From Strigops habroptila (taxonomy: Eukaryota; Chordata; Aves; Psittaciformes; Psittacidae), in assembly GCF_004027225.2 (NCBI RefSeq), contig NC_044301.2, positions 21,160,223 through 21,224,222 on the forward strand: 64,000 nucleotides of DNA, given 5' to 3'. Both the position numbers and the translations under genes were made by a program. Shown here piece by piece: positions 1 to 53,467 of this stretch; the stretch's first letter is position 1, and each line of letters begins with the position of its first letter. The notes under the pieces were generated by a model. It was not told the origin of the DNA, did not search any database, and saw only the letters and a program-made list of their open reading frames with translations.

Positions 1-306
1 TGTGGTGTGACCAGTGACAAACCCAGCATTCTTCCTGCAGTTTGATGCTGAGGTGAGGCAAGAGCTGCACAGAATAACCTGTGCAGTGTTGCGCTGGCAG
101 GACTGCAGCTTTATGCTGGATACAGAGCACGCCTGAATCCCTTCAAAGCATTCTCACCCCAAAACATTCTGAGATGCAGTAAGCTCTTGCTGGTTGGTTT
201 TTCCCCGGTGTCTTTCTGGTGTGGCAGAGTAATATAAGTCTGAGCGGTGGGCTGGGAGCGGGAGTCTCCATGGTGCTTTCATATCTTCTTTCTCCGTGAT
301 CTGCAG

Positions 307-430
307 CAAGACTTTGTGAGCATGCTAAATTGTGCAGCTTCTACAGGACGCAGCACAGCGGGAGGCCCTACAGGAGTACCGCTGGCCTGGCAACACGTTG
401 CTCGGGCTGTCAGTCCTGGTCTGAGACAAT
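307..430 (+). pseudogene. Exon-like segment, left-arm copy
   Basis: A pyrimidine-rich tract ending in CTGCAG precedes a segment matching the right-arm exon-like sequence at 15745-15891. This copy has several single-base losses relative to the right arm, so no frame stays open. The end is not defined. It is probably an inverted copy of a downstream exon of the TANGO6-like gene, but I assign that only from position and orientation. Confidence 0.3.
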
Positions 431-1151
431 GCTGCTGCACACCTTCCAGCATCAGAGTTGTGCAGCTGGTCACAGGGAAGGACGGATTGCAGGGAATCTG
501 CAAGTGCTGAATCTTCAGAGGGTGCCTGAGCTCTCCTCCCAGGCTGTCGCTGGTTCCCTCTTCTTAGTGCCTCTGCCTCAGTTTCCTTCCTGTAGAGCAT
601 GGATAGTACGGCTCATGCTGAGCCCAGCGTTATCTGTGTGGGAGGAGATCCCACTGGGAGCTGCTCTCCCTGCCTCTGAGGTCTGCAGAGGGCAGCCTGA
701 GCCAGTGCTGCAGCTGAAGCCTCCCTACAGCTCCTGCAGCATTAATCCCTCGCAGAGGAATGAATGGCAGCCAGCTCTTGTGTTGGGCCAAAATGCTTCT
801 GAATGAGTGACCTGGAAAAGAGGGCACCTCCTCTGGAGCTGCTCTCGGTGCAGCATGGTACCTGGAGGCAGCAGTGGGGCCTTGGAGCTGGTCTGTGTGC
901 CAGCTTCAGAAGCAGGAGGGATTGCTGGAGCTCAGCAGCTCTCCCAGCCCAGATCAGGTGCTGGGGATGGGGAGGGTTCAGGAAAATGGAAGGAAACTTG
1001 GGTCTTATCAGAGAAGCACTTTTGCTTTGCCAGTAACAGACCACCTTCTGTGTTAGAAGTGTCTTGTGGGGCAGGACGGTGCAGGCTTAGCACCTTCTGT
1101 GGAGCTCCTTCCTGCAAGAGGTCCCTTGGAGTTACAAACAGGGTGTTCAGC

Positions 1152-1571
1152 TGTGGACAGGATTTGGCTACTCTCAGCAGGACTCCCAGTGCTGTTCAGC
1201 TGATAGAAGGAGACGTGTTGGAACTTGTCGGTCATAAACCATGGGAGGAATAAGATAAGGATAAAAGCTTGGCTGAAAAAGAATGGCCCAGTGTTTATCA
1301 ATCACGGGTTGGAAAGGTTGAGGGAGAAGGGAGTAGCCGACCTTGATGAAGAGGAGCTAACTCTTTGTGTAAGAAAAGATGTTGCTGGGGGAGATAAATG
1401 CTTGATTAATAGTTTGTCTTATGCACTAGCCAATCAGTGTGTGCCTTCTGTAAAAGATAGACCAATCAGTATGAGACATGCTAGGTAGGACAAGTATAAA
1501 TGTATATGGATAACTGTAATAAAACGACATCTTGTTGCATTCAAGCTGCGTCCCGTCTCTCAATCGCGGCA
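1152..1571 (+). mobile_element. Solo LTR, alpharetrovirus-like family (left arm)
   Basis: It starts TGTGGACAGG and ends GCGGCA, with a TATA-like GTATAAA and an AATAAA near 1520. It matches the two LTRs of the provirus at 16388-19756. It is flanked by a perfect 6-bp duplication TTCAGC (1146-1151 and 1572-1577), the length typical of alpharetroviruses. The same solo LTR with the same duplication is in the right arm, so it inserted before the arms were duplicated. Confidence 0.85.
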
Positions 1572-2764
1572 TTCAGCAGCATAGACCTTGGCTCTGGCGT
1601 TTGGGGGAGGGTAGGGTCCATTCTTGTGACTCCCTATGATGAACAGGGCTTTCTGTGGAGGAGGCCTCTCTTCTGAAACCTTCCCGCATAGCTCCTTTTC
1701 CTGCCGTTCCCACCAGCACCACACTGCAGGCTTTGCTGCCTGCCCTGACAGCAGCCCAGCTCTCTGCTGCACGTTCCAACCCAGAAGGACATCTCCAGCC
1801 CAGGAATTCAGTTTTAAGAAGCTGGTGACTTGCTTACTGGCATGCCCCTAGGCAGGCTAAGCTCTTAAATGCTGTGATTGTTGTAGTATTTTGTTGTAGT
1901 AATGATTTGTTGACTAGCTGGCAGCAGAGACCAGTCTGAAGGGCTGCTCTGTGGTTCTGTTCACAATGAGTGCTGGGGATTTGGGGCGGATCCCTCCTTA
2001 ATGGCATTAAGTGCTGGAGGCCTGAAAGCAGCCAGATTAGTGAGAGAGACTTCAGCCTGTGGATTTGTGGGGTTTCTTGCCTGGCAAAGTGTCATTTGAT
2101 GCTGAGTGAGAAATCATCCTTGGGCGTTCACAGGGAGGCTTTGTGTACAAAAGGTTCTGGGTTAGGAAGAATGGCTCCACAGGGATTAGCACAGGAAAAA
2201 AGGTCTGTTTGCATCAATACAGCAGGGCAGAACATTATCAGGATAATCTCCCTCCTAGCCCTCCTACCTGGGTTGTCACACTGCAGGCAAAAGTTCTTTT
2301 TTGTTCTCCTGGGCACATCCAGCCTTGGAACAGAGATTGCTTTCCAGCTGCACAGGCTGGAGGGAGGTGTGGGGAGCACTCTGGTGTGAAGGGACAGCAT
2401 CTTCTGAGCAGGTAGTTCACCAGCTGACCAGCTGGAAGAAAGTCCCTTGGAGAACTGGTGAAAAGACTTTATTTCCTGCACCACTCCAGCTAAAAGCTAT
2501 GGAGGGAGGTAGAGCCTGATAAAATGAGGACCTGGACACAACAACCCTGAGTCCAGCTGGGTCAGGCTTGGTGTTTAACCATTTTCTAGACCAAGTTTTC
2601 CCAGCATTATGGCTTTGACTGAAAGCATCTTACCTGGCTTCTAGTTTCAGATGATTCCTTTAAAAGGGTTCAAAAGGAAACACTCCTGTGAGTGCTTTTT
2701 CTCTGCTCTGTGGGCAGCAAGGTAGGGCTTGTGTGCAGTGAGCTGGTGTTCTGCTGACAGATAG

Positions 2765-2931
2765 GGTACGCCACAAAGTGACCACACACTAGCTGTATAA
2801 TATGCAGAGTTTATTAAACAAGCACGCTAAAGCCAATAAGCACACTAAAGCAAGCACACTAATGTGAACTAGGTAAATATATCTCTCTATATAGTGAATA
2901 AGTACGATAAAGCAAATCAGAGATATAGGTA
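2765..2931 (-). mobile_element. Older LTR fragment (left arm), host of the young ERV
   Basis: An AT-rich segment continues, on the far side of the young provirus, from sequence at 6213 onward. On the minus strand it carries an AATAAA and ends near TGGCGTACCC, as an LTR R-U5 would. The young provirus at 2932-6212 splits it, leaving GGTA on both sides. The family is not recognised. Confidence 0.45.
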
Positions 2932-3466
2932 TGTCATAAATTGTGACCACAACGGATCATAATCCAATTAAAATTTTATTAATTATAGCAAGTAGAATAT
3001 GAGCAAAAACAGCGCTGGACGACAGGGGAGTCTGCGCTCCGCCACTGCCGTGCTGAGCAGTTCAAACAGTCCCTTTTTATACATCTTTACTTCCGTGTTC
3101 ATGAAGTAGTGGAGGTACTCTGCGCATGCTTCAGTTGTTGTTAGGGGGTCGTTTTCTACCTCCTGGTGGTCGTTGAGGCCGAAATAAGAAGTCTTTCTCC
3201 TTTATCCCATAGTTGACCCCTCATTCACATGTCCTTATCTGGGGTTGTTTGTCCTGTTTCTGTCGGTTCCTGGAAGTCTGGCGGTTATCTCGCGATTGTG
3301 GTTATCTTATCTTACTCAAGCAGTGTCCGGGTTTCTGTTTGCATAAGCGATTTCACATCTTTGTTGCCTAACCTTTACATTGAGCTTAACATAAATCTTA
3401 ATAAACAATATCCTAGTCCATAGTTTCTCACAATCCCCCCTTTTCTTTTTATCCTATTATTGTTTA

Positions 3467-4612
3467 TTAGACGTTACTTTCATTTCGGCACTGCGAACAA
3501 ACCTTTTTCCACAATCCCAATATTTATCATAACACTCACAAGGTAATACCTCACAATTACAAAAGGCATAGTTCCCACGTGGCATAATGTATTCACAGCA
3601 ATCTTCATCTTCATTAATAGATACACTCTTATATTTTGCCCCAGACCTCGTAGTTAAAATAAGCAGTTTAGCTATGTCAAAACCGTTCTTTAATAAAGTG
3701 TATTTTATGTTTGTTATTGTCTAGTTCATAGGTTTATGAGGGTTTCCATTTGCTTGGGTTATTATCAATAACAAAACTAACGGTATACCAGAAAAAAGGG
3801 TGTCTGTTAATTTTGCCAATTTAAGTATATTTTTACCAGTCCTGGGGAAGTTCGGCCATTGCTGCTTTTGTGTCCCATCGTTCTGGTTCTTTTCTCCACA
3901 GTTTGTTCCTCCTCTGCCTCGCCCGTCGACTCGGTTGCTTCGAGCCACGGGGTGTACCATCTTCTCGGCAGCAAGGGAATTCTTCAGGAGAACAGTTGTT
4001 TCGGGCTTTCTGCCTGTTTATATAGGCTTCCCACTTTGCAGCTTTAACTAATGGGGCAAAGTAAGACACGGTCAGTACTTCCCTTCTGCATTTTTATAAC
4101 CAAAATTTCAGCTACAAAGGGGACTGGTTCGTTGGAGTGGTAGCAATAATATTGAGGGTTTATTCCTTTGGCAAAAATTTCCCACCACTCATGGGATTCC
4201 CGAATAATTTCTTGTTTAGACTCTAATTGCTTTAATTTCCACTCAGTGAGAGTTCTTTGGATTTTCCAACACTGTGTGCAAACTCCTATTGGAGGGTATC
4301 CACATTCACAATGTGTCTACCATTTATCCTGGCATACCTTACACCTAAAACAAGCAAATGGATAACAATTGCAGTTCAAATCATTACACCCACCTAATTC
4401 GTATATCTAGAGTGCATATATTATTTACATCAACATATCTTCTATATTTAATATTGTGAGGTTGCATAAGTTTAGCAATTTCCTTCAACACACTTTGTAC
4501 GCTTCCATATATAATAGAAAAAAGAGAAATAATTATAGCAAATATAAACAGCAATACACACTTTATACCGAAAGGTAATGCGGCAAAATAATCAAATAAA
4601 GTCTTTATCATT
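3467..4612 (-). other. Block of small ORFs, left copy (mirror of 11563-12707)
   Basis: This is the reverse-oriented copy of the unfamiliar 1.2-kb cargo described for the right arm. Two run-length differences alter its frames: an A-run near 4510 (6 against 7) fuses the membrane mini-ORF to the next short frame, giving 75 codons at 4611-4384, and an A-run near 4095 (5 against 4) breaks the cysteine/arginine-rich frame. The leader-like ORF (3960-3721) is the same as its right-arm partner. Confidence 0.65.
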
Positions 4613-4640
4613 ACGTTATCTTTTCAGGGTTATCTTGGTG

Positions 4641-5315
4641 TCACCTGGAGTACTGATTACTTTCCAGTGGGGTCTCAATTAAGTTTCCCATTTCGGTTCT
4701 TTTAAAATCTCGTAGGTCAGCCGAGTTTAGGGGTACGGAAATATATCCGATCACAGGTTGAGGTCCCCCCATGGGTATTTCCCTTAGGGGGTACATCTGA
4801 GCTGCCCCTTTTTGACTTCTAGTTACGCGTCTAGGAAGAGGGGGGAGACCCTTGTTCCGACTCTGGTGGGGGAGTGGGCGCTCTGGGGACTTCTGTGGGA
4901 GCAGGAGGAGGAATGTAAGGAGGGGGGTTAGAAGGGTTTCGTCTAACTCTTCCTTCTTTTTCTTTTGTTTAGTTTTTATTTCATTCAGCGGATAAAGTCT
5001 AGCTCTCGGTCTTTCTAGCCACACTTCCGCATATTGACTCTCCTCCGGGTTAAGGGGATTTTTATTATTAACCCAGAGGTTTAATTGCTGTCTTACCCAA
5101 TCTTCTTCTGACCCATAGACTGGCCAAAAGACATTTTTAGAAATCTTCTTCCCTCCCCATATCTTAGTACAATATTCTATCATTTTTTGCTTATCTTTCC
5201 CTAGGGTTCCAGGGGAATATCTCCAATTGTCTAAGATATATGCCAGAGGGGTATTCTTAGGTACAGTGTGTACCCTCCCCATGGGAGTCGAAGGCTTGCT
5301 GCCCTTCGCCCCCAT
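4641..5315 (-). pseudogene. gag: Truncated Gag (MA-p12-start of CA), left copy, frame disturbed
   Basis: Mirror of the right-arm gag. It begins with the same MGAKGS myristoylation-type start and matrix region. A C-run of 6 instead of 7 near 4922 shifts the frame just before the PPPY late-domain motif, and a second run difference near 4846 (6 against 5) shifts it back, so the proline-rich stretch is replaced by unrelated residues. Both changes are at homopolymers, which makes consensus error likely. As on the right, Gag stops shortly after the start of capsid. Confidence 0.8.
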
Positions 5316-7447
5316 CTTCTGGATTATCCACAAACACACACTCACTCGCTCCCCTTATTCCTGGCCCAGTCCCTCGCGGGAGGTGGGAAACGCAGTACTA
5401 AAGGGTCCACACTCGCTTGGTTCAGTATATCGAACCTCTCGTTCATTATAATCCAGGATACCCAATCCCGCCCGAACGGCGAACCCGCGAACAACTTCGC
5501 AGTATACTTACGCGTCCTGCGTCTTCGTCCGGACTCCCGTGCACAGAATTTTATGGGATTTTACCGGTCCTTTTTTGCTCAATATCCTAGAATTTAGGTT
5601 CGTCGGTAAGGTTGGAGTGAGCTGTTGGTCGCGGGGCCGCGAAATGTCGCGGGGCGCCTCCCCGGAGGACCAAAGCCCACCGTTCCTTATCCGAGTCACG
5701 GCACCAGAAATTGTCATAAATTGTGACCACAACGGATCATAATCCAATTAAAATTTTATTAATTATAGCAAGTAGAATATGAGCAAAAACAGCGCTGGAC
5801 GACAGGGGAGTCTGCGCTCCGCCACTGCCGTGCTGAGCAGTTCAAACAGTCCCTTTTTATACATCTTTACTTCCGTGTTCATGAAGTAGTGGAGGTACTC
5901 TGCGCATGCTTCAGTTGTTGTTAGGGGGTCGTTTTCTACCTCCTGGTGGTCGTTGAGGCCGAAATAAGAAGTCTTTCTCCTTTATCCCATAGTTGACCCC
6001 TCATTCACATGTCCTTATCTGGGGTTGTTTGTCCTGTTTCTGTCGGTTCCTGGAAGTCTGGCGGTTATCTCGCGATTGTGGTTATCTTATCTTACTCAAG
6101 CAGTGTCCGGGTTTCTGTTTGCATAAGCGATTTCACATCTTTGTTGCCTAACCTTTACATTGAGCTTAACATAAATCTTAATAAACAATATCCTAGTCCA
6201 TAGTTTCTCACAGGTATATAAGTACCGAAGAAAGTTAGCAATGCATTAAATCATTACTGTATAGAGAGAACAGAGATTAAGAAGAAATACATCACCAATT
6301 ACCACTGAATCATCATCCAGGCCCACACTTCCAGCTGGGAAGCCCCGTTGCAGCCGATGCCAGGAGTCTCAGGTAATTGGGGAAAATTCCTACGCGGTGC
6401 ATCCACCCATAGGTGAGGCTTCTCTCATGGCCACAAGAGGATCCCGCTTTTATACCCTTATCAAAACAACCGGCTTTATGCCAGATCTCTAATTGTTTTT
6501 CTCGTGGGACCGTGCAGTTTCTCACGATCTCACCCTTGTCCACTCTGAGAGCGTTGGCAAGGCGCCCCAGTGCGGCCAAGTATGAAGGTCATAGAACAGC
6601 TGCACACCTGTGTTTTCCTGCCTCTTTCCAACAAACAGTCACGAGGAACATAAACATATATACTCTGCTGAATACACTGTGGCAAACAACATCCTTTGTT
6701 ATGTCTCTCGGTCATGAGAGGGAATCAACTCTCAGCTAGGTTCCCATCCATTACAGCTGGTAACAGTGGCTTGCCCGGGAAGGGTGTGCTGGTTTCGAGG
6801 AGGAGGGCATTGACCATGTTTTGGGAGGGTGCTGCTTGAGATGGAGGAGAGGAACATGGCCCTACAAACCTCCTTAGAGCCCCTGCAACCCCCTTGCTCA
6901 GCTCAGCACAGCACGCGTCAGCCCAGCTGCCCTGCTAGGGACTGATCTCTGTATTTTGAGATTTGGCTCCAAGTGCAGTATTTCCATAAAGATTTGCTAA
7001 TTCAGAGGTGCCTGTTGCATCTCTCAACACAAGACCTTAGCCCTAAGCCACAGACTTCCTGAAGAGCTGGATGCAGTGTTCCTGTAGCTTGGAGCCCTGC
7101 TGTGGTTAAGCAAATGCTAGGAGAAAGATGGTGCCGAAGGCTGCTTTTAATACAGAATATGGCATAATCAGGGAAAACAGGCTCTAGACAGAAAGGAATG
7201 GAGGCTGCCTCGTCTGGTTTCATCAAAGTTCATTCTTTGTTGGGGTGATGATCGGAGGGAAGTCAGGGTCAGTCGATGGTGACCTGAGGACAGTTCTGCT
7301 GCTGCTGCTGGCTTTCCCATGACTTTATTCTCTGCTGATGATCACGACAGCACATATCTTCTTTTCAAAGCCCAGAGTGGTGGAGATGGGCATTTAGCTG
7401 ATGGGCTATCGAAGTGTTATCTAGCAGGCAACAGCATATAATTGAGT

Positions 7448-7930
7448 TCATTGGCTGTTTTCCCCCAAAATTAAATCCCCTTGAGGTACACACCAGACTT
7501 CCCCATATTCCCGCATTACCCACCAAGTATATCCAGGTCCCTGAGCGAAAGCAACCCCGCGAGTGGGTTTGCCTTTACCTGAAGCAGGAATAACCCAGAC
7601 TGTCTTCCCCAACAAATTCTTTATGTGCACCACAGGAACGTTATCCCCCTCTATGGTACGTAAAAGTTCTGATTGGGCTCCAAAAGCCGAGGGGCCGACC
7701 TCGAGTCTCCCCTGGAGCTTTCTGCCAGAGGCTCCAGGTAGGACCATTCTCCCTGGCTGCGGTGTAAAACACATTTTTCACATCTTGCCTGGTCTAGACT
7801 GGTCCGAGGGCTACTGCATGAACTATCTCTCGTTTAATTTGTTCAAAGGCTTGTTGTTGCTCAGGGCCCCATTTGAAATCATTCTTCTTCCGGGTCACGT
7901 GACAGGGCTTATAATCAGAACGTGGACGCA
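7448..7930 (-). pseudogene. Retroviral pol remnant, left copy
   Basis: Mirror of 8245-8727. It has a piece resembling the connection region of reverse transcriptase (about 7930-7775) joined to a piece like an integrase C-terminus (ending at 7448, with TVWVIPASGKGK and YTWWVMREYG). The frames differ and are interrupted by stops, so this is a deleted remnant, not a gene. Confidence 0.6.
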
Positions 7931-8056
7931 CCGCGTAGAAATTTTCCCCAATTACCTGAGACTCCTGGCATCGGCTGCAACGGGGCTTCCCAGCTGGAAG
8001 TGTGGGCCTGGATGATGATTCAGTGGTAATTGGTGATGTATTTCTTCTTAATCTCT

Positions 8057-8118
8057 ATAGGTATATAAGTACCGAAGAAAGTTAGCAATGCATTAAATCA
8101 TTACTGTATAGAGAGAAC
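8057..8118. other. Palindrome spacer (62 bp)
   Basis: The symmetric sequence stops at 8056 and resumes in reverse complement at 8119. The unpaired 62 bp are AT-rich and also occur next to the retroviral insertions at about 6211-6273 and, reversed, at 9900-9961. The palindrome centre therefore sits inside an older repeat that is present several times in alternating orientation. Confidence 0.88.
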
Positions 8119-8244
8119 AGAGATTAAGAAGAAATACATCACCAATTACCACTGAATCATCATCCAGGCCCACACTTCCAGCTGGGAAGCCCCGTTGCAG
8201 CCGATGCCAGGAGTCTCAGGTAATTGGGGAAAATTTCTACGCGG

Positions 8245-8727
8245 TGCGTCCACGTTCTGATTATAAGCCCTGTCACGTGACCCGGAAGAAGAATGATTTC
8301 AAATGGGGCCCTGAGCAACAACAAGCCTTTGAACAAATTAAACGAGAGATAGTTCATGCAGTAGCCCTCGGACCAGTCTAGACCAGGCAAGATGTGAAAA
8401 ATGTGTTTTACACCGCAGCCAGGGAGAATGGTCCTACCTGGAGCCTCTGGCAGAAAGCTCCAGGGGAGACTCGAGGTCGGCCCCTCGGCTTTTGGAGCCC
8501 AATCAGAACTTTTACGTACCATAGAGGGGGATAACGTTCCTGTGGTGCACATAAAGAATTTGTTGGGGAAGACAGTCTGGGTTATTCCTGCTTCAGGTAA
8601 AGGCAAACCCACTCGCGGGGTTGCTTTCGCTCAGGGACCTGGATATACTTGGTGGGTAATGCGGGAATATGGGGAAGTCTGGTGTGTACCTCAAGGGGAT
8701 TTAATTTTGGGGGAAAACAGCCAATGA
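8245..8727 (+). pseudogene. Retroviral pol remnant, right copy
   Basis: The first part encodes FKWGPEQQQAFEQIK-like residues typical of the RT connection domain, then a TAG at about 8378. A different frame, from about 8500, encodes VVHIKNLLGKTVWVIPASG and YTWWVMREYGEVW, resembling an integrase C-terminal domain. RNase H and the integrase core are missing, so the two ends of pol are joined by an old deletion. The element family cannot be fixed from this much. Confidence 0.6.
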
Positions 8728-9844
8728 ACTCAATTATATGCTGTTGCCTGCTAGATAACAGGTTAATAACCCTTCAGCTAGATGCTCATCTCCACCACTC
8801 TGGGCTTTGAAAAGAAGATATGTGCTGTCATGATCGTCATTGGAGAATAAAGTCATGGGAAAGCTGGCAGCAGCAGCAGAACTGTCCTCAGGTCACCATC
8901 GACTGACCCTGACTTCCCTCCGATCATCACCCCAACAAAGAATGAACTTTGATGAAACCAGACGAGGCAGCCTCCATTCCTTTCTGTCTAGAGCCTGTTT
9001 TCCCTGATTATGCCATATTCTGTATTAAAAGCAGCCTTCGGCACCATCTTTCTCCTAGCATTTGCTTAACCACAGCAGGGCTCCAAGCTACAGGAACACT
9101 GCATCCAGCTCTTCAGGAAGTCTGTGGCTTAGGGCTAAGGTCTTGTGTTGAGAGATGCAACAGGCACCTCTGAATTAGCAAATCTTTATGGAAATACTGC
9201 ACTTGGAGCCAAATCTCAAAATACAGAGATCAGTCCCTAGCAGGGCAGCTGGGCTGACGCGTGCTGTGCTGAGCTGAGCAAGGGGGTTGCAGGGGCTCTA
9301 AGGAGGTTTGTAGGGCCATGTTCCTCTCCTCCATCTCAAGCAGCACCCTCCCAAAACATGGTCAATGCCCTCCTCCTCGAAACCAGCACACCCTTCCCGG
9401 GCAAGCCACTGTTACCAGCTGTAATGGATGGGAACCTAGCTGAGAGTTGATTCCCTCTCATGACCGAGAGACATAACAAAGGATGTTGTTTGCCACAGTG
9501 TATTCAGCAGAGTATATATGTTTATGTTCCTCGTGACTGTTTGTTGGAAAGAGGCAGGAAAACACAGGTGTGCAGCTGTTCTATGACCTTCATACTTGGC
9601 CGCACTGGGGCGCCTTGCCAACGCTCTCAGAGTGGACAAGGGTGAGATCGTGAGAAACTGCACGGTCCCACGAGAAAACAATTAGAGATCTGGCATAAAG
9701 CCGGTTGTTTTGATAAGGGTATAAAAGCGGGATCCTCTTGTGGCCATGAGAGAAGCCTCACCTATGGGTGGATGCACCGCGTAGGAATTTTCCCCAATTA
9801 CCTGAGACTCCTGGCATCGGCTGCAACGGGGCTTCCCAGCTGGA

Positions 9845-9957
9845 AGTGTGGGCCTGGATGATGATTCAGTGGTAATTGGTGATGTATTTCTTCTTAATCT
9901 CTGTTCTCTCTATACAGTAATGATTTAATGCATTGCTAACTTTCTTCGGTACTTATA
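9845..9957 (+). mobile_element. Older LTR-like segment (right arm), 5' of the young ERV
   Basis: AT-rich sequence shared with 6217-6330 and with both sides of the palindrome centre. It continues beyond the young provirus at 13248-13430, where AATAAA and a likely LTR end are seen. The provirus interrupted it at TACC. Confidence 0.45.
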
Positions 9958-10467
9958 TACCTGTGAGAAACTATGGACTAGGATATTGTTTATTAAGATT
10001 TATGTTAAGCTCAATGTAAAGGTTAGGCAACAAAGATGTGAAATCGCTTATGCAAACAGAAACCCGGACACTGCTTGAGTAAGATAAGATAACCACAATC
10101 GCGAGATAACCGCCAGACTTCCAGGAACCGACAGAAACAGGACAAACAACCCCAGATAAGGACATGTGAATGAGGGGTCAACTATGGGATAAAGGAGAAA
10201 GACTTCTTATTTCGGCCTCAACGACCACCAGGAGGTAGAAAACGACCCCCTAACAACAACTGAAGCATGCGCAGAGTACCTCCACTACTTCATGAACACG
10301 GAAGTAAAGATGTATAAAAAGGGACTGTTTGAACTGCTCAGCACGGCAGTGGCGGAGCGCAGACTCCCCTGTCGTCCAGCGCTGTTTTTGCTCATATTCT
10401 ACTTGCTATAATTAATAAAATTTTAATTGGATTATGATCCGTTGTGGTCACAATTTATGACAATTTC

Positions 10468-10485
10468 TGGTGCCGTGACTCGGAT
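10468..10485 (+). other. Primer binding site, tRNA-His type
   Basis: TGGTGCCGTGACTCGGAT lies 5 bp after the 5' LTR. It is the complement of a tRNA-His 3' end, the same primer type used by class I HERV-H-like elements. The left-arm copy is at 5689-5706. Confidence 0.9.
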
Positions 10486-10858
10486 AAGGAACGGTGGGCT
10501 TTGGTCCTCCGGGGAGGCGCCCCGCGACATTTCGCGGCCCCGCGACCAACAGCTCACTCCAACCTTACCGACGAACCTAAATTCTAGGATATTGAGCAAA
10601 AAAGGACCGGTAAAATCCCATAAAATTCTGTGCACGGGAGTCCGGACGAAGACGCAGGACGCGTAAGTATACTGCGAAGTTGTTCGCGGGTTCGCCGTTC
10701 GGGCGGGATTGGGTATCCTGGATTATAATGAACGAGAGGTTCGATATACTGAACCAAGCGAGTGTGGACCCTTTAGTACTGCGTTTCCCACCTCCCGCGA
10801 GGGACTGGGCCAGGAATAAGGGGAGCGAGTGAGTGTGTGTTTGTGGATAATCCAGAAG

Positions 10859-11533
10859 ATGGGGGCGAAGGGCAGCAAGCCTTCGACTCCCATGGGGAGG
10901 GTACACACTGTACCTAAGAATACCCCTCTGGCATATATCTTAGACAATTGGAGATATTCCCCTGGAACCCTAGGGAAAGATAAGCAAAAAATGATAGAAT
11001 ATTGTACTAAGATATGGGGAGGGAAGAAGATTTCTAAAAATGTCTTTTGGCCAGTCTATGGGTCAGAAGAAGATTGGGTAAGACAGCAATTAAACCTCTG
11101 GGTTAATAATAAAAATCCCCTTAACCCGGAGGAGAGTCAATATGCGGAAGTGTGGCTAGAAAGACCGAGAGCTAGACTTTATCCGCTGAATGAAATAAAA
11201 ACTAAACAAAAGAAAAAGAAGGAAGAGTTAGACGAAACCCTTCTAACCCCCCCTCCTTACATTCCTCCTCCTGCTCCCACAGAAGTCCCCAGAGCGCCCA
11301 CTCCCCCACCAGAGTCGGAACAAGGGTCTCCCCCTCTTCCTAGACGCGTAACTAGAAGTCAAAAAGGGGCAGCTCAGATGTACCCCCTAAGGGAAATACC
11401 CATGGGGGGACCTCAACCTGTGATCGGATATATTTCCGTACCCCTAAACTCGGCTGACCTACGAGATTTTAAAAGAACCGAAATGGGAAACTTAATTGAG
11501 ACCCCACTGGAAAGTAATCAGTACTCCAGGTGA
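10859..11533 (+). CDS. gag: Truncated Gag: matrix, p12-like PPPY region, first residues of capsid
   Basis: I start at the ATG giving MGAKGSKPS, because glycine at position 2 fits N-myristoylation; an in-frame upstream ATG at 10829 also exists. Residues 1-100 have the gammaretroviral matrix look (WPVYGSEEDWV near 65). A lysine-rich stretch near 120 is followed by a proline-rich segment with the PPPY late-domain motif near 135 that recruits NEDD4-type ligases. About 35 residues of capsid follow (PLREIPMGG, then a segment near ISVPLNSADLRDFK) before a novel tail and a stop. Full gammaretroviral Gag is over 500 residues, so most of capsid and all of nucleocapsid are missing. Confidence 0.85.
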   Translation: MGAKGSKPSTPMGRVHTVPKNTPLAYILDNWRYSPGTLGKDKQKMIEYCTKIWGGKKISKNVFWPVYGSEEDWVRQQLNLWVNNKNPLNPEESQYAEVWLERPRARLYPLNEIKTKQKKKKEELDETLLTPPPYIPPPAPTEVPRAPTPPPESEQGSPPLPRRVTRSQKGAAQMYPLREIPMGGPQPVIGYISVPLNSADLRDFKRTEMGNLIETPLESNQYSR

Positions 11534-11562
11534 CACCAAGATAACCCTGAAAAGATAACGTA

Positions 11563-11703
11563 ATGATAAAGACTTTATTTGATTATTTTGCCGCATTACC
11601 TTTCGGTATAAAGTGTGTATTGCTGTTTATATTTGCTATAATTATTTCTCTTTTTTTCTATTATATATGGAAGCGTACAAAGTGTGTTGAAGGAAATTGC
11701 TAA
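11563..11703 (+). CDS. 46-residue single-pass membrane mini-protein (hypothetical)
   Basis: A short polar start is followed by about 20 hydrophobic residues (CVLLFIFAIIISLFFYYIW) and then a basic tail, KRTKC, as in a type III or signal-anchored membrane peptide. I recognise no family. The frame depends on a run of 7 T at 11651-11657; the left arm has 6, which fuses it to the next frame. It lies just after gag, where the start of pol would be. It could be an accessory peptide or chance. Confidence 0.4.
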   Translation: MIKTLFDYFAALPFGIKCVLLFIFAIIISLFFYYIWKRTKCVEGNC

Positions 11704-11707
11704 ACTT

Positions 11708-11791
11708 ATGCAACCTCACAATATTAAATATAGAAGATATGTTGATGTAAATAATATATGCACTCTAGATATACGAATTAGGTGGGTGTAA
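11708..11791 (+). CDS. 27-residue ORF (hypothetical)
   Basis: Opens with ATG five bases after the previous stop and encodes a basic, polar peptide with no recognisable feature. In the left arm it is continuous with the membrane mini-ORF because of a one-base run difference, so the two may really be one 75-codon frame. Function unknown. Confidence 0.25.
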   Translation: MQPHNIKYRRYVDVNNICTLDIRIRWV

Positions 11792-12341
11792 TGATTTGAA
11801 CTGCAATTGTTATCCATTTGCTTGTTTTAGGTGTAAGGTATGCCAGGATAAATGGTAGACACATTGTGAATGTGGATACCCTCCAATAGGAGTTTGCACA
11901 CAGTGTTGGAAAATCCAAAGAACTCTCACTGAGTGGAAATTAAAGCAATTAGAGTCTAAACAAGAAATTATTCGGGAATCCCATGAGTGGTGGGAAATTT
12001 TTGCCAAAGGAATAAACCCTCAATATTATTGCTACCACTCCAACGAACCAGTCCCCTTTGTAGCTGAAATTTTGGTTATAAAATGCAGAAGGGAAGTACT
12101 GACCGTGTCTTACTTTGCCCCATTAGTTAAAGCTGCAAAGTGGGAAGCCTATATAAACAGGCAGAAAGCCCGAAACAACTGTTCTCCTGAAGAATTCCCT
12201 TGCTGCCGAGAAGATGGTACACCCCGTGGCTCGAAGCAACCGAGTCGACGGGCGAGGCAGAGGAGGAACAAACTGTGGAGAAAAGAACCAGAACGATGGG
12301 ACACAAAAGCAGCAATGGCCGAACTTCCCCAGGACTGGTAA
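11769..12341 (+). CDS. Cysteine-cluster plus arginine-rich reading frame with one in-frame TAG
   Basis: One frame is open from 11769 to 12341 except for a TAG at 11856-11858. Before the TAG are seven cysteines in 19 residues (spacings C-x4-C-x-C-x4-C-x2-C-x2-C); just after it come HCEC and CTQC. This looks like a zinc-binding cluster. Next is a helical, tryptophan-rich stretch (about 11910-12000), then a CC pair, then a strongly basic segment at 12215-12300 (SRRARQRRNKLWRK) like an RNA-binding arginine-rich motif, ending QDW. There is no ATG at the front, so it may be a spliced exon. Cys cluster plus basic motif recalls retroviral regulatory proteins as an analogy only; I see no proven homology. 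Confidence 0.5.
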
Positions 12342-12453
12342 AAATATACTTAAATTGGCAAAATTAACAGACACCCTTTTTTCTGGTATACCGTTAGTTT
12401 TGTTATTGATAATAACCCAAGCAAATGGAAACCCTCATAAACCTATGAACTAG
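12214..12453 (+). CDS. 79-residue leader-like ORF with hydrophobic segment
   Basis: It begins with ATG and overlaps the arginine-rich frame in another phase. The first 50 residues are basic and polar. Residues about 55-72 are hydrophobic (LFSGIPLVLLLIITQA) and look like the core of a signal peptide with a small-residue end. It stops soon after. Long basic leaders before the hydrophobic core are known for some retroviral envelopes, so this may be the start of an envelope or secreted product whose remainder lies in the next frame. Confidence 0.45.
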   Translation: MVHPVARSNRVDGRGRGGTNCGEKNQNDGTQKQQWPNFPRTGKNILKLAKLTDTLFSGIPLVLLLIITQANGNPHKPMN

Positions 12454-12707
12454 ACAATAACAAACATAAAATACACTTTATTAAAGAACGGTTTGACATA
12501 GCTAAACTGCTTATTTTAACTACGAGGTCTGGGGCAAAATATAAGAGTGTATCTATTAATGAAGATGAAGATTGCTGTGAATACATTATGCCACGTGGGA
12601 ACTATGCCTTTTGTAATTGTGAGGTATTACCTTGTGAGTGTTATGATAAATATTGGGATTGTGGAAAAAGGTTTGTTCGCAGTGCCGAAAATGAAAGTAA
12701 CGTCTAA
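12441..12707 (+). CDS. Cysteine-rich 88-residue frame without start codon
   Basis: Open from a TAA at 12438-12440 to a TAA at 12705-12707. It has charged residues, then CC, CNC, CEC and a final C within about 30 residues, with many aromatic residues around them, suggesting a small disulphide-linked or metal-binding fold. No ATG lies near its beginning, and it starts where the leader-like ORF ends in another phase. I do not recognise it. It ends 17 bp before the polypurine tract. Confidence 0.4.
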   Translation, partial: TYELDNNKHKIHFIKERFDIAKLLILTTRSGAKYKSVSINEDEDCCEYIMPRGNYAFCNCEVLPCECYDKYWDCGKRFVRSAENESNV

Positions 12708-12724
12708 TAAACAATAATAGGATA

Positions 12725-12742
12725 AAAAGAAAAAGGGGGGAT
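12725..12742 (+). other. Polypurine tract of the right-arm ERV
   Basis: AAAAGAAAAAGGGGGGAT directly precedes the 3' LTR start at 12743, as expected for the plus-strand primer. The mirror copy is at about 3433-3450. Confidence 0.85.
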
Positions 12743-13247
12743 TGTGAGAAACTATGGACTAGGATATTGTTTATTAAGATTTATGTTAAGCTCAATGTAA
12801 AGGTTAGGCAACAAAGATGTGAAATCGCTTATGCAAACAGAAACCCGGACACTGCTTGAGTAAGATAAGATAACCACAATCGCGAGATAACCGCCAGACT
12901 TCCAGGAACCGACAGAAACAGGACAAACAACCCCAGATAAGGACATGTGAATGAGGGGTCAACTATGGGATAAAGGAGAAAGACTTCTTATTTCGGCCTC
13001 AACGACCACCAGGAGGTAGAAAACGACCCCCTAACAACAACTGAAGCATGCGCAGAGTACCTCCACTACTTCATGAACACGGAAGTAAAGATGTATAAAA
13101 AGGGACTGTTTGAACTGCTCAGCACGGCAGTGGCGGAGCGCAGACTCCCCTGTCGTCCAGCGCTGTTTTTGCTCATATTCTACTTGCTATAATTAATAAA
13201 ATTTTAATTGGATTATGATCCGTTGTGGTCACAATTTATGACATACC

Positions 13248-13430
13248 TATATCTCTGATTTGCTTTATCGTACTTATTCACTATATAGAGAGATATATTT
13301 ACCTAGTTCACATTAGTGTGCTTGCTTTAGTGTGCTTATTGGCTTTAGCGTGCTTGTTTAATAAACTCTGCATATTATACAGCTAGTGTGTGGTCACTTT
13401 GTGGCGTACCCTATCTGTCAGCAGAACACC
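13248..13430 (+). mobile_element. Older LTR fragment, 3' of the young ERV
   Basis: Direct continuation of the segment interrupted at 9957. It contains GTGTGCTTGCTTTAGTGTGC-like short repeats, AATAAA near 13361 and an end resembling GGCGTACCC. This is probably the R-U5 part of an old LTR of unknown family. Confidence 0.45.
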
Positions 13431-14611
13431 AGCTCACTGCACACAAGCCCTACCTTGCTGCCCACAGAGCAGAGAAAAAGCACTCACAGGAGTGTTTCCT
13501 TTTGAACCCTTTTAAAGGAATCATCTGAAACTAGAAGCCAGGTAAGATGCTTTCAGTCAAAGCCATAATGCTGGGAAAACTTGGTCTAGAAAATGGTTAA
13601 ACACCAAGCCTGACCCAGCTGGACTCAGGGTTGTTGTGTCCAGGTCCTCATTTTATCAGGCTCTACCTCCCTCCATAGCTTTTAGCTTGGAGTGGTGCAG
13701 GGAAATAAAGTCTTTTCACCAGTTCTCCAAGGGACTTCTTCCAGCTGTGTCAGCTGGTGAACTACCTGCTCAGAAGATGCTGTCCCTTCACACCAGAGTG
13801 CTCCCCACACCTCCCTCCAGCCTGTGCAGCTGGAAAGCAATCTCTGTTCCAAGGCTGGATGTGCCCAGGAGACAAAAAAGAACTTTTGCCTGCAGTGTGA
13901 CAACCCAGGTAGGAGGGCTAGGAGGGAGATTATCCTGATAATGTTCTGCCCTGCTGTATTGATGCAAACAGACCTTTTTTCCTGTGCTAATCCCTGTGGA
14001 GCCATTCTTCCTAACCAGAACCTTTTGTACACAAAGCCTCCCTGATGAAGCCCCAAGGATGATTTCTCACTCAGCATCAAATGACACTTGCCAGGCAAGA
14101 AACCCCCACAAATCCACAGGCTGAAGTCTCTCTCACTAATCTGGCTGCTTTCAGGCCTCCAGCACTATGCCATTAAGGAGGGATCCGCCCCAAACTCCCC
14201 CAGCACTCATTGTGAACAGAACCACAGAGCAGCCCTTCAGACTGGTCTCTGCCTGCCAGCTAGTCAACAAATCATTACTACACAAAATACTACAACAATC
14301 ACAGCATTTAAGAGTTTAGCCTGCCTAGGGGCATGCCAGTAAGCAAGTCACCAGCTTCTTAAAACTGAATTCCTGGGCTGGAGATATCCTCCTGGGTTGG
14401 AACGCCCAACAGAGAGCTGGGCTGCTGTCAGGGCAGGCAGTGAAGCCTGTAGTGTGGTGCTGGTGAAACTGGTGGGAACGGCAGAAAAAGGAGCTATGAG
14501 GGAAGGTTTCAGAAGAGAGGCCTCCACAAAAGGCCCTGTTCCATCATAGGGAGCACAAGAATGGACCCTACCTCTCCCCCAAACGCCAGAGCCAAGGTCT
14601 ATGCTGCTGAA

Positions 14612-15036
14612 TGCCGCGATTGAGAGACGGGACGCAGCTTGATGCAAGCAAGATGTCGTTTTATTACAGTTATCCATATACATTTATACTTGTCCCTACC
14701 TAGCATGTCTCATACTGATTGGTCTATCTTTTACAGAAGGCACACACTGATTGGCTAGCTAGCATAAGACAAACTATTAATCAAGCATTTATCTCCCCCC
14801 AGCAACATCTTTTCTTACACAAAGAGTTAGCTCCTCTTCATCAAGGTCGGCTACTCCCTTCTCCCTCAACCTTTCCAACCCGTGATTGATAAACACTGGG
14901 CCATTCTTTTTCAGCCAAGCTTTTATCCTTATCTTATTCCTCCCATGGTTTATGACCGACAAGTTCCAACACGTCTCCTTCTATCAGCTGAACAGCACTG
15001 GGAGTCCTGCTGAGAGTAGCCAAATCCTGTCCCACA
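14612..15036 (-). mobile_element. Solo LTR, alpharetrovirus-like family (right arm)
   Basis: Reverse-oriented partner of 1152-1571, about 425 bp, with GCTGAA on both sides (14606-14611 and 15037-15042), the complement of the left-arm duplication. Same family as the LTRs at 16388 and 19332. It differs from its left-arm partner by several small indels. Confidence 0.85.
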
Positions 15037-15744
15037 GCTGAACACCCTGCTTGTCACTCCAAGGGACCCCTTGCAGGAAGAGCCTCCACAGAAGGTGCTA
15101 AGCCTGCGCCGTCCTGCCCACAAGACACTTCCTCTAACACGGAAGGTGGTCTATTATTGGCAGAGCCAGAGTGCTGCTCTGATGAGACCCAAGTTTCCTT
15201 CCATTTTCCTGAACCCTCCCCATCCCCCAGCACCTGATCTGGGCTGGGAGAGCTGCTGAGCTCCAGCAATCCCTCCTGCTTCTGAAGCTGGGCACACAGA
15301 CCAGCTCCAAGGCCCCACTGCTGCCTCCAGGTACCATGCTGCACCGAGAGCAGCTCCAGAGGAGGTGCCCTCTTTTCCAGGTCACTCGTTCAGAAGCATT
15401 TTGGCCCAACACAAGAGCTGGCTGCTGCTCATCCCTCTGCGAGGGGTTAATACTGCAGGAGCTGTAGAAAGGCTTCAGCTCCAGCACTGGCTCAGGCTGC
15501 CCTCTGCAGACCTCAGAGGCAGGGAGAGCAGCTCCCAGTGGGATCTCCCTCCCACACAGATAACGCTGGGCTCAGCATGAGCCGTACTATCCATGCTCTA
15601 CAGGAAGGAAACTGAGGCAGAGGCACTAAGAAGAGGGGAACCAGCAACAGCCTGGGAGGAGAGCTTGGGCATCCTCTGAAGATTCAGCACTTGCAGATTC
15701 CCTGCAATCTGTCCTTCCCTCTGACCAGCTGTACAACTGTGACA

Positions 15745-15891
15745 CTGGAAGGTGTGCAGCAGCATTGTCTCAGACCAGGACTGACAGCCCGAGGCAACGT
15801 GTGCCAGGCCAGCGGTACTCCTGACTAGGGCCTCCCGCTGTGCTGCGGTCCTGTAGAAGCTGCACAATTTAGCAATGCTCACAAAGTCTTG
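15745..15891 (-). pseudogene. Exon-like segment, right-arm copy
   Basis: On the minus strand a pyrimidine tract ends in CTGCAG at 15892, followed by an open frame of about 45 codons containing QDFVSIAKLCSFYRT and STAGLAHVAS, which reads like alpha-helical repeat protein. A GT for the donor is possible near 15770-15745 but not certain. Strand and order fit a late exon of the TANGO6-like gene (34.1 kb downward). The left-arm copy is broken. Confidence 0.35.
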
Positions 15892-16286
15892 CTGCAGATC
15901 ACGGAGAAAGAAGATATGAAAGCACCATGGAGACTCCCGGCTCCCAGCCCACCGCTCAGACTTATATTACTCTGCCACACCAGAAAGACACCGGGGAAAA
16001 AACCAACCAGCAAGAGCTTACTGCCATCTCAGAATGTTTTGGGGTGAGAATGCTTGAAGGGATTCAGGCAGTGCCTCTGGTATCCAGCATAAAGCTGCAG
16101 TCCTGCCAGCGCAACACTGCACAGGTTATTCTGTGCAGCTCTTGGCCTCACCTCAGCATCACAACTGCAGGAGATGCTGGGTTTTGTCATGGTCACACAC
16201 ACACTGAACTGCTCAGAGAGTCTCAAACCGGCTCTTTCTTAGAGTAGTCTTCTCATCTACCCTCAGGCCCAAATCAGACACGATAC

Positions 16287-26140: not shown

Positions 26141-27110
26141 GGGGCTTTCTTTATCTTGGAGTAGTGCAGCCAAGTGGTTATCCCGTGAGCTTTCACTGCA
26201 GTGTATGTCGCCAGGAGTGTCTGGTACGGTCCTTTCCACTTTTCACCTAATGTGAAGGATTTAATGTAAATCCAGTCTCCCAGCTTAACGTCATGTAATG
26301 GGTGATCAAGACCTCTTGATCGAGTGTCCATTACCTGTTTGTTAATATTCAATAAGTTGTTTACCTAATTCTATAATGTAATCTCTCACATACCCTTCTC
26401 CCGCCTGATTTAAATCTTCCCCTTGATATTGTACAGTATACGGTTGTCCATAAAGCATTTCAAAAGGGCTTAGTTTCTCTTTTAATCGCGGTTTAACCCT
26501 TATCCGCAACAAGGCTAGAGGTAATGCTTGACTCCAGTTTAAATTAGTTTCTTGACAAATCTTTGCTAATTGTTGTTTAATCAAATGATTCATTTTCGCT
26601 ACCTGTCCACTAGCCTGTGGTCGATAAGGGGTATGTAGCTGCCAATCAATTCGTAATATCTGACTGATTCGCTGTACAATTTGTGCACAAAAATGAGTAC
26701 CTCTATCTGAGGATATGGTTGCTGGCACTCCAAATCTGGGGATTATTTCATTAAGGAGCACCTTATTTACTTCTCGAGCCTTGTTGCTCCGTGTTGGAAA
26801 AGCTTCTGGCCAGCCAGAGAAGGCATCTGTTAGTACCAAAAGGTACCTGTACCCTCCTTTTCTGGGTAATTCAGAGAAATCAATTTGCCACTGTTGTCCA
26901 GGGACATTGCCCTTCCCAATCGCCCCTAAACTGGGTTTACTAGTAGTCTGGGGGTTATTACGGAGACAGAGTTTGCATTGTTTTGTTATTTGTGTTACTG
27001 TGGTGTATAGGTTACGTCCCACTATTCGTCTCCTTAAACTATTATATAGGGCGTCTGCTCCCCAGTGCGTCTTATTATGTTCTTCTTGAACTATTTTCCA
27101 TAATATTCAT
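26068..27110 (-). pseudogene. pol: Integrase domain, catalytically altered
   Basis: A zinc-binding-type CKLC segment near 26975 is followed by the core: QIDFSEL (first D), SSDRGTHF (second D) and SGQVAKMN, where the third catalytic residue, normally glutamate, is alanine. A C-terminal domain with DWIYIKSFT and WKGPYQTLL lies in another frame (26352-26068). The frame change near 26345 and the lost glutamate mean no active integrase. The gamma-type SGQV motif places this pol with gammaretroviruses. Confidence 0.8.
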
Positions 27111-27971
27111 TCTGGCACTACTATTTGTCCTTCAGGAAGAACATACATTTTATCTTTAAGTTGTGCCTTTAAATCCTGAGCTAGTTTAAAATCTTCCTTT
27201 GAATAAGAAATTTCAGAATTAATACTTACTATCTTTCCGTCTGGTATTATGGCCAATAGGTTTACCTCTCCTTCTTCTGCCACTCTTTTTGCCTCTAAAT
27301 CTGCCAGTCGGTTCCCTTTTTCCTGATCCGTGTCACCCCTTTGGTGTCCTCTGCAGTGCATCACTGCCACTCGATTCGGCAATCTTATAGCTTCAAGAAG
27401 CCTCAATATCTCTGCAGAGTGCTTGATTTGTTTTCCATGAGACATCAAAAGCCTGCGGCTCTTTCCACACAGCCCCGTGGGCATGAACTACTCCAAATGC
27501 GTATTTTGAGCCTGTCCAAATATTAATGTCTCTTCCATTGGCTAATTCTAGCACTCTTGTTAGAGCAATAATTTCGGCTTTTTGCGACAATGTTCCTGCT
27601 GGGAGGGCTCGGGCTTCAATGGTTCTCTGAGTAGTGGTTACAGCATATCCTGCTTTCCAAACCCCATTTTTAACAAAGCTGCTTCTGTCAGTGAACCAGG
27701 CTTCTGTTTTCGGCAAGGGTTCTTCTTTTAAATCAGGCCGGCTTGAGTAAGTGGCTTCGATGGTTTCTAGGCAGTCATGAGTTACCAGTTCCCTGATTGC
27801 TGCGGCATTGCTGAGAAAAGAGGCTGGGTTGACAATATTAGTAGTGACTATATCTACATCATCTGGTTCTACCAATATCGCTTGGTACTTAAGGAACCGA
27901 GAGGGAGACAGCCAGTGCCCCCCTTTTTGTTCCAGTACCGCAGATACGGTATGCGATACCAGGATAGTCAT
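27107..27971 (-). pseudogene. pol: RNase H region, catalytically altered
   Basis: It follows the RT connection (LSPSRFLKYQAIL). WFTDRSS stands where TDGSS is usual, AEIIALTRVLEL keeps the glutamate, and IWTGSKYAFGVVHA has glycine in place of the second catalytic aspartate. Two overlapping frames (27971-27393 and 27484-27107) show a frame shift. The enzyme would be inactive. Confidence 0.8.
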
Positions 27972-28222
27972 CCTTTGCCCTATAGTGAATTTTCAAGCTT
28001 CCTGGATGTTTAGGACCACGGCTGCTACTGCCCGTAAGCATCCAGGCCATCCTTTGCTTACTTCATCTAGTTGCTTTGGGAAGTAAGCTACAGCTCTTTT
28101 ATAGGGTCCTATATTTTGAGCTAGGACCACGAGGGCTATGCCTTGTCTCTCATGTAAAAATAACCAAAAGGGTTTGGTGACGTCTGGCAGTCCGAGGGCT
28201 GGGGCCCTCATTAATGCCTTCT

Positions 28223-28788
28223 TGTCCTGGGTTCAGCTACAGCAGTCATTTTTCTCCTTCTTAGTAGCTGGCGCAGTGCTGTGTTTTTTAACTTTCAGCC
28301 TGGGAACAACGCTGATAACACTGATGTTTTTAGTTGTTGCTAAGTAATGTTTACTCCGACCAAGGACTTTCTCAGTCTCATGCTTTGCCAGGGAGGAGGG
28401 GAAGCCGGGAGGAAGCAGAGACAGGACACCTGACCCAAACTGGCCAAAGGGGTATTCCATACCATGGCACATCATGCCCAATATATAAACCGGGGGGAGT
28501 TACCCGGAAGGCCAGATCACTACTTGGGTCGGGCTGGGTATCGGTCGGCGGGTGGTGAGCAATTGTATCCTCTCCCCTTGTTATTTCCCTTATCATTATT
28601 ATCATTGGTGGTAGCAGTAGTGGTTTGGTATTATTCCTTAGTTACTGGACTGCTCTTATCTCAGTCCGTGGGAGTTACATTCTTCCGATTCTCCTCCCCA
28701 TCCCTCCGGGAGCGGGGGGAGGAAGAAGAGGGGGAGTGAGCGAGCGGCTGCGTGGTTCCGAGTTACCGGCTGGGCTCAAACCACGACA
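28223..28788 (+). mobile_element. Solo LTR inserted in the old provirus's pol (copy 1 of 3)
   Basis: 566 bp from TGTCCTGGG to CACGACA with a perfect 5-bp duplication CTTCT (28218-28222 and 28789-28793). It splits the RT from its connection region. Two more copies, in opposite orientation, are at 35765-36341 and 43595-44163. Minus-strand orientation would give TGTCGTGGTTT as the start. Coding direction of the parent element is unknown. Confidence 0.9.
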
Positions 28789-53346: not shown

Positions 53347-53467
53347 TTTTACAGGTCAGCTATTCTCTCTAACTTTAATTTCAATTGGTGCCATTTGTAG
53401 TCCTCCTCGGTTCCCCTCTCTGACCCATACCTGTGGTTGAATTTTTGCCTTATCTTCCTCAGTTAAC

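What the first reader, a model, noticed from the sequence alone, without database searches (positions are those of the whole stretch)
9962..13243. Young retroviral element carries ~1.2 kb of unfamiliar small genes in place of pol and env
The element has identical-looking LTRs, a tRNA-His primer site, a polypurine tract and a 4-bp target duplication, yet between a truncated gag and the 3' LTR there is no pol or normal env. Instead come a membrane mini-ORF, a cysteine-cluster/arginine-rich frame, a leader-like ORF overlapping it, and a second cysteine-rich frame. The overlap of an arginine-rich frame with a leader-like ORF is an arrangement familiar from complex retroviruses. Simple gammaretroviruses do not have it. 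This could be a new accessory-gene set or captured host or viral sequence.
Basis: partly seen in the sequence, partly recalled or inferred. Interest (0 to 1): 0.88.

Follow-up and report, generated by a model that had tools for sequence, protein, structure and literature searches.

The report
Stripped-down bird retrovirus with accessory gene
The piece in the window is a shrunken copy of a young bird retrovirus; its odd small frames are leftovers of a full-length relative that carries an extra cysteine- and arginine-rich gene between pol and env, which is unusual for this normally simple kind of retrovirus.

Summary
The element at 9962-13243 is real: 501/501 identical LTRs, TSD TACC, His-type primer site, polypurine tract. 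Nothing replaced pol and env; two internal deletions removed them. The window's own assembly holds 63 young-family places. Fourteen of 20 fetched loci keep this interval together with env, in the order gag, pol, orfA, orfC, env. The 'unfamiliar genes' are the last pol codons, orfA (46 codons, one membrane span), orfC (broken in this copy), the Env leader and Env's Cys-rich tail. orfC is the novelty: 209 codons, Cys-rich N-terminal third, Arg-rich C-terminus, 128 nt overlap with env, open in 8 of 14 loci. Outside the overlap its variation is mostly synonymous (14 of 22 changes, neutral mean 6, P=0.00015). A divergent provirus (pol 54-60% identical, different Env) carries a degraded homologue at the same place. 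Pfam, PDB and this genome show no other relative. Best reading: a gammaretrovirus-like lineage with a conserved accessory gene, perhaps a nuclear zinc/RNA-binding regulator (function inferred). The window copy is a non-autonomous passenger, doubled in an inverted repeat that reaches the window's edge.

The parts
9962..10462 (+). 5' LTR, 501 bp
   Evidence: Identical to the 3' LTR over 501/501 bases, TSD TACC on both sides
10468..10485 (+). Primer binding site, tRNA-His type (motif recalled)
   Evidence: TGGTGCCGTGACTCGGAT 5 nt after the LTR; no tRNA gene compared
10463..10858 (+). 5' untranslated leader (packaging signal presumed)
   Evidence: About 97-100% identical in fetched relatives that hold it; packaging role inferred
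10859..11533 (+). gag, truncated: matrix, p12-like part, start of capsid, then a few codons out of frame beyond the junction
   Evidence: Open frame; same frame runs 469 codons in L013 and L021; L013 frame matches Gag_p30 E 4e-31
11498..11510 (+). Deletion junction 1 (gag capsid to pol 3' end) in a short stretch shared by both sides; about 4.19 kb missing relative to L013
11499..11558 (+). Last 19 codons and stop of pol (integrase C-terminus), out of frame with gag
   Evidence: 100% identical to the end of L013 pol
11563..11703 (+). orfA, 46 codons, one predicted membrane span
   Evidence: 46 codons in 11 of 14 loci that keep env, 42 in the other three; hydropathy 2.7 over 19 aa; no sign of purifying selection (1 synonymous, 5 other changes)
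11708..12341 (+). orfC, accessory gene (Cys-rich N-terminal third, Arg-rich C-terminus), interrupted in this copy by a small frameshifting insertion and a nonsense codon; 27 codons from its start
   Evidence: 209 codons open in 8 of 14 loci that keep env; synonymous excess P 0.00015; homologue in L026
12214..12453 (+). Env leader/signal peptide, 79 codons; overlaps the end of orfC
   Evidence: 93% identical to the start of L013 env; stop at 12451
12454..12470 (+). Deletion junction 2 (Env N-terminus to Env TM tail); about 1.6 kb missing relative to full env
   Evidence: the two env pieces lie 1.6-1.7 kb apart in loci that keep env; junction exact in L001-L008, L008 being the window copy
12462..12707 (+). 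C-terminal cytoplasmic tail of Env TM (about 80 residues, Cys-rich)
   Evidence: 89% identical to L013 Env C-terminus; in L013/L014 it follows the TM membrane span
12724..12741 (+). Polypurine tract
12743..13243 (+). 3' LTR
2932..6212 (-). Mirror copy of the same insertion in the other arm of an inverted repeat

Best explanation
The window element is a double-deletion, non-autonomous derivative of a young gammaretrovirus-like endogenous retrovirus. Shown: longer relatives in the same genome carry gag-pol-orfA-orfC-env; the window copy lost the capsid-to-integrase part and most of env; the same doubly deleted form sits at three other sites, so it was copied, presumably by proteins supplied in trans by full-length relatives (inferred), while keeping LTRs, primer site, leader and polypurine tract. 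Well supported: orfC is a conserved protein-coding gene (synonymous excess, homologue in a divergent lineage, overlap with env kept). Inferred: orfC is made from a spliced mRNA and acts as a nuclear, zinc-binding (Cys clusters) and RNA-binding (Arg-rich C-terminus) regulator of viral RNA synthesis or export, by analogy of architecture with Tat/Rev-type proteins (about 0.35); an antagonist of a host defence factor is the next choice (about 0.3). orfA may be a small viroporin-like membrane protein, or nothing.
For: Anatomy of relatives: (20 loci mapped). Deletion junctions. Other insertions of the doubly deleted form: L002, L004, L005, each with its own 3' flank. Gammaretrovirus-like Gag p30, Pol and Env. 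orfC open 209 codons in 8 of 14 loci. In the part outside the env overlap, 14 of 22 changes among 11 copies are synonymous, neutral mean 5.95, P 0.00015; of the six frames this one has the most synonymous changes (14 against 3-11); pairwise dN/dS there is 0.09 within group I, against 0.42 for gag and 0.41 for pol. Homologue in L026, between its pol and env: 68 and 46 bits against at most 22 bits in 300 shuffles; searches from two open L026 pieces return the young family next after L026 itself (E 6.7e-6 and 2.5e-6). The orfC/env overlap is better conserved at DNA level between the two lineages (71% over 91 nt) than pol (62%) or the Cys part (58%).
Against: No transcript, peptide or structure supports orfC or its role. 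The AlphaFold model of the window's 160 aa frame is useless (mean pLDDT 45, one sequence). No Tat- or Rev-family match in Pfam or PDB. Inside the overlap the orfC frame does not look constrained among young copies (11 non-synonymous, 1 synonymous), so the Arg-rich tail is the less certain part. With the three broken subgroup II copies added the synonymous excess weakens (16 synonymous, 17 other), and between groups orfC has dN/dS 0.39, above gag 0.21 and pol 0.22. The R-region hairpin is not better than shuffles (z -1.2 and -1.6). The only splice acceptor above threshold near orfC lies inside it. orfC is broken in 6 of 14 loci that keep env, among them the 3 of subgroup II whose Env frame is open, and in the deletion derivatives examined, so it is dispensable in cis. 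L026 is a single degraded locus.
Confidence: 0.82

Rival explanations
1. orfC is an antagonist of a host defence factor (Vif- or Vpr-like adaptor using zinc-binding cysteines) rather than a gene-expression regulator.
For: Cys clusters in a frame without a Pfam match; accessory genes in the pol-env interval of lentiviruses often have such roles (recalled); broken in derivatives that spread inside the genome, as expected if it matters for infection rather than intracellular copying.
Against: A basic C-terminal stretch in both lineages fits a nucleic-acid binder better; no host target known.
Confidence: 0.3
2. The interval is non-coding or env-leader sequence and orfC is a chance frame.
For: Part of the frame lies over env; orfA shows no selection; orfC is broken in 6 of 14 loci that keep env; the orfC frame is unconstrained inside the overlap.
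Against: Synonymous excess outside the overlap, P 0.00015, largest in the orfC frame; protein-level homology in the divergent L026.
Confidence: 0.06
3. orfC is a captured host gene.
For: Capture between pol and env without loss of viral genes is described for a crocodilian ERV (PMC4299795, passages seen).
Against: Outside this family and L026 the best translated match in the 1.15 Gb genome is E 0.68; the L026 homologue implies an old viral residence.
Confidence: 0.06
4. The window copies are an assembly artefact as a whole.
For: The element sits twice in an inverted repeat whose arms differ only by homopolymer indels over 4.5 kb and which reaches the window's left edge, next to 4 kb that read N.
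Against: The same doubly deleted form occurs at three other sites with different flanks. Only the duplication, not the element, may be artefactual.
Confidence: 0.03

Closest known systems
Gammaretroviruses (MLV/XMRV type) and class I ERVs
   Same: Gag p30, gag and pol in one frame separated by a stop, RT best matched by gammaretroviral RT chains (MMLV named; XMRV for the top chains recalled), GPY motif in integrase, CWLC and CX6CC in Env (motifs read by eye, names recalled)
   Different: Extra gene(s) between pol and env; His-type primer site (recalled motif); Env tail about 80 residues and Cys-rich, while gammaretroviral Env tails are typically around 25-35 residues (PMC9967133, passages seen)
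Lentiviral Tat, Rev and Vpu genes
   Same: Position in the pol-env interval, overlap with the env start, Cys cluster plus Arg-rich stretch, a small membrane ORF nearby (analogy, recalled)
   Different: No sequence match in Pfam or PDB; Cys-rich and Arg-rich parts in one 209-codon frame; order orfA, orfC, env differs from tat, rev, vpu (recalled)
Non-autonomous ERV derivatives (ETn/MusD, VL30, deleted HERV-H, IAP delta forms; recalled)
   Same: Young copies with cis elements kept and coding regions deleted, present at several sites
   Different: Carry a broken accessory gene and a Cys-rich Env tail
CrocERV29 with captured KIT-ligand (PMC4299795, passages seen)
   Same: Additional gene between pol and env without significant loss of viral genes
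   Different: That gene is a recognisable host mRNA; no cellular relative of orfC was found here

Membership tests
Gammaretrovirus-like (class I) ERV | Gag p30 and Pol of MLV type, same frame with a separating stop | tested here: met
   L013:
Gammaretrovirus-like (class I) ERV | Gamma-type Env (TLV_coat, CX6CC) | tested here: met
   Pfam E 7e-106; TM matches MLV-related and syncytin entries; motif read
Gammaretrovirus-like (class I) ERV | Simple genome without accessory genes in the pol-env interval | tested here: not met
   orfC; simple genome stated as typical in PMC9967133 (passage)
Tat or Rev family | Sequence match to the family | tested here: not met
   No Pfam family at E up to 10 for orfC (that Pfam holds Tat and Rev models is recalled); 3 PDB chains at E 0.28-1.9, none a Tat or Rev
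Tat or Rev family | Binding to a viral RNA element and gain of expression or export | not testable with these tools
   Needs cell assays; the R hairpin is not significant
Captured host gene | Recognisable cellular homologue | tested here: not met
   Own genome only; the wide protein database was not available
Non-autonomous ERV derivative | Same deletions at several insertion sites with LTR, primer site and polypurine tract kept | tested here: met
   L002, L004, L005 plus the window copy (of L002, L004 and L005 only the end of the 5' LTR is held)

The most novel reading that the evidence does not exclude
A complex gammaretrovirus: a bird retrovirus lineage with MLV-type Gag, Pol and Env that evolved, independently of lentiviruses, a zinc- and RNA-binding regulatory protein (orfC) overlapping the env start, kept through a change of Env type; many copies that lost it live on as deleted passengers of the rest.
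Probability: 0.3. Interest if true: 0.85.

Novelty: new variant of a known kind. Interest (0 to 1): 0.66.

Why it matters
[quoted passage not shown] A selected gene between pol and env in a young bird lineage, with a homologue in a divergent lineage of the same genome, would show that the simple/complex divide is crossed within gammaretrovirus-like viruses. It gives a concrete protein to test, and a natural comparison between copies with and without it.

Tried and rejected
Shared Cys module between orfC and the Env tail: protein alignments gave 48 and 54 of 2000 shuffles at or above the score, tail against tail 453 of 2000, L026 tail against an L026 orfC piece 428 of 2000, and DNA alignment 462 of 1000; dropped. 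TAR-like hairpin: not significant. orfC homologue in the other related provirus of the window (50353-55347, minus): 20 bits, shuffles reach 26; not supported, although its env resembles that of L026 (50% over 465 columns). AlphaFold of the window frame: pLDDT 45, so no fold search was made. Splice signals by a simple recalled matrix: one acceptor above threshold in L013 6600-8450, inside orfC (7521), none in L026 6900-8000; no donor above threshold in the leader of L013 or in window 10460-12500; one donor in L013 pol (6177); inconclusive. IMG/VR and GTDB scans for orfC: no relative; these collections are poor places for bird ERVs. Literature: ten searches in the open PMC library, and passages of five papers (PMC4299795, PMC9967133, PMC2717909, PMC8854603, PMC8310711). 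In these listings and passages I saw no description of an accessory gene in an avian gamma-type ERV; OVEX1 is said to have no obvious accessory ORFs (PMC2717909, passage). Subscription papers are not held, and one search was badly set (a truncated term with whole-word matching). Species: assembly size and contig count fit the kakapo assembly as I recall it, and C25 would be its W; not verified.
Full report
Observation. The element at 9962-13243 has LTRs identical over 501/501 bases, a TACC target duplication, a primer site that I recall as tRNA-His type, a truncated gag and a polypurine tract. With a recalled bird rate near 2e-9 per site per year, no difference in 2 x 501 sites means an age below roughly 1.5 million years.

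What the frames are. A search of the window's own assembly with the Cys/Arg frame gave 91 matches and, with the longer frame of L013, 124 matches (the tool says such counts are lower bounds). The stronger rows cluster into 63 young-family places plus one divergent place on C12 (the place list was typed, and further rows of the same copies were merged or left out). Twenty places were fetched as 10 kb stretches and mapped. Fourteen keep the interval and env (L009-L019, L022, L027, L028; L017 lacks part of gag-pol, and in L028 the 5' end was not found). Five others (L020, L021, L023, L024, L025) are deletion forms, and L026 is the divergent relative. In the 14 the order is LTR, gag, pol, orfA, orfC, env, LTR as far as held; pol was read in L013 and aligned in the others. 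In those with an intact 5' half, the two LTR starts lie about 8.6 kb apart, so the whole is about 9.1 kb. Compared with this, the window copy misses about 4.19 kb from gag capsid to the end of pol, and about 1.6 kb of env. So window 11499-11558 is the end of pol, 11563-11703 orfA, 11708-12341 orfC, 12214-12453 the Env leader, and 12462-12707 the Env tail.

The passenger. Of the eight loci cut out automatically, L008 is the window copy itself. L002, L004 and L005 share both junctions exactly but have other 3' flanks. L001, L003, L006 and L007 share only the env junction, and L020, L021 and L023 also run straight across the env deletion while keeping more of gag-pol. The env deletion therefore probably came first, and different gag-pol deletions followed. 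The doubly deleted form has been copied several times, with proteins presumably supplied by full-length relatives (inferred). In the deletion derivatives orfC is broken (L002-L008, L020, L021, L023; L001 has a stop inside; L024 and L025 lack its 5' part). Eighteen of 63 places lie on C25, against 2.05 expected (P 1e-12; the two mirror copies of the window both count). This fits the W-chromosome refugium described for birds including kakapo (PMC8310711, passages seen), if C25 is a W chromosome, which I did not verify.

orfC. In L013 it runs from 7403 to 8032 and overlaps env (start 7905) by 128 nt (read by eye). It is open for 209 codons in 8 of 14 loci, broken in 6, among them all 3 of subgroup II (L018, L019, L022). 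In L013 it has 18 cysteines, 11 of them in residues 18-65, and ends in an Arg/Lys-rich stretch that stays basic in the copies listed (L019 and L027 were not caught by that listing). Among the 11 group I copies, outside the overlap, 14 of 22 changes are synonymous against 5.95 expected, P 0.00015; in the other five frames the counts are 3-11. Same test: pol 34 of 85 (P 0.007), env after the overlap 15 of 33 (P 0.0035), gag 12 of 36 (P 0.23), orfA 1 of 6 (P 0.90). Pairwise dN/dS outside the overlap is 0.09 within group I, against 0.42 for gag and 0.41 for pol; between groups I and II it is 0.39 for the whole of orfC (0.25 outside the overlap), against 0.21 and 0.22. The changes are not independent of copy relatedness, and env in these copies differs by up to 11.7% while gag and pol differ by at most about 1.1%, so recombination is likely. 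When the three broken subgroup II copies are added the excess weakens: 16 synonymous, 17 other. Inside the overlap the orfC frame shows 11 non-synonymous and 1 synonymous change, the env frame 9 and 3.

The divergent homologue. L026 has gag pieces 38-54% and pol 54-60% identical to the young family, LTRs 97.4% identical over the 302 bases held, and an Env of another type (25% to L013 over 209 columns, but 50% over 465 columns to the Env of the provirus at 47.8-55.3 kb in the window). Between its pol and env lies an orfC homologue: two stretches of 68 and 46 bits against a shuffle maximum of 22 in 300. It is degraded by stops. Searches with two open pieces of it return the young family next after itself, at best E 6.7e-6 and 2.5e-6. 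DNA identity is 71% in the overlap, 58% in the Cys part, and 62% in pol, as expected if both frames of the overlap were kept, or if an RNA signal lies there.

Negative searches. Pfam at E up to 10 gave no family for orfC. PDB gave three chains at E 0.28-1.9, taken as chance. Viral and prokaryote contig scans gave none. The large protein database was switched off. Hence 'no known relative' means none in these collections.

Mechanism. The best guess is a nuclear regulator: Cys clusters for zinc, a basic C-terminus for RNA, expression from a spliced mRNA. None of these steps is shown. The loss of orfC in elements that spread as passengers fits a trans-acting or infection-related role, and speaks against an essential cis role. 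A role against a host defence factor is nearly as likely.

Known or new. By Gag, Pol and Env it is gammaretrovirus-like; by its extra gene it fails the simple-genome feature said to be typical (PMC9967133, passages seen). It is not a member of the Tat or Rev families by sequence. I rate it a new variant of a known kind.

Noticed in passing
window 1-16203: One inverted repeat (98.1% overall, centre near 8102) holds the element twice; over 4.5 kb the arms differ only by 8 homopolymer indels. The 4 kb left of the window read N (gap or withheld). Likely fold-back assembly artefact or a recent palindrome.
   Followed up: partly
window 47768-55347 (-): Another gammaretrovirus-like provirus, pol 54% identical to the young family, Env related to that of L026, no significant orfC homologue; LTR-like repeats 95.5% identical.
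   Followed up: partly
L026 1265-1566 and 9640-9845: The Env frame of L026 runs through the polypurine tract into U3 of the 3' LTR, so its Cys-rich C-terminus is encoded in the LTR.
   Followed up: partly
L009-L017, L027, L028 env 5' part: Env differs by up to 11.7% between copies whose gag and pol differ by at most about 1.1%: several Env variants on one backbone, suggesting recombination.
   Followed up: no
L020 (C1:122.909-122.919 Mb), L023: Tandem arrays of deleted proviruses sharing LTRs (three matches about 4.68 kb apart on C1), as expected from LTR-LTR recombination.
   Followed up: no
window 26149-31722 (-): A third, more distant gag-pol element (pol pieces 30-49% identical).
   Followed up: no
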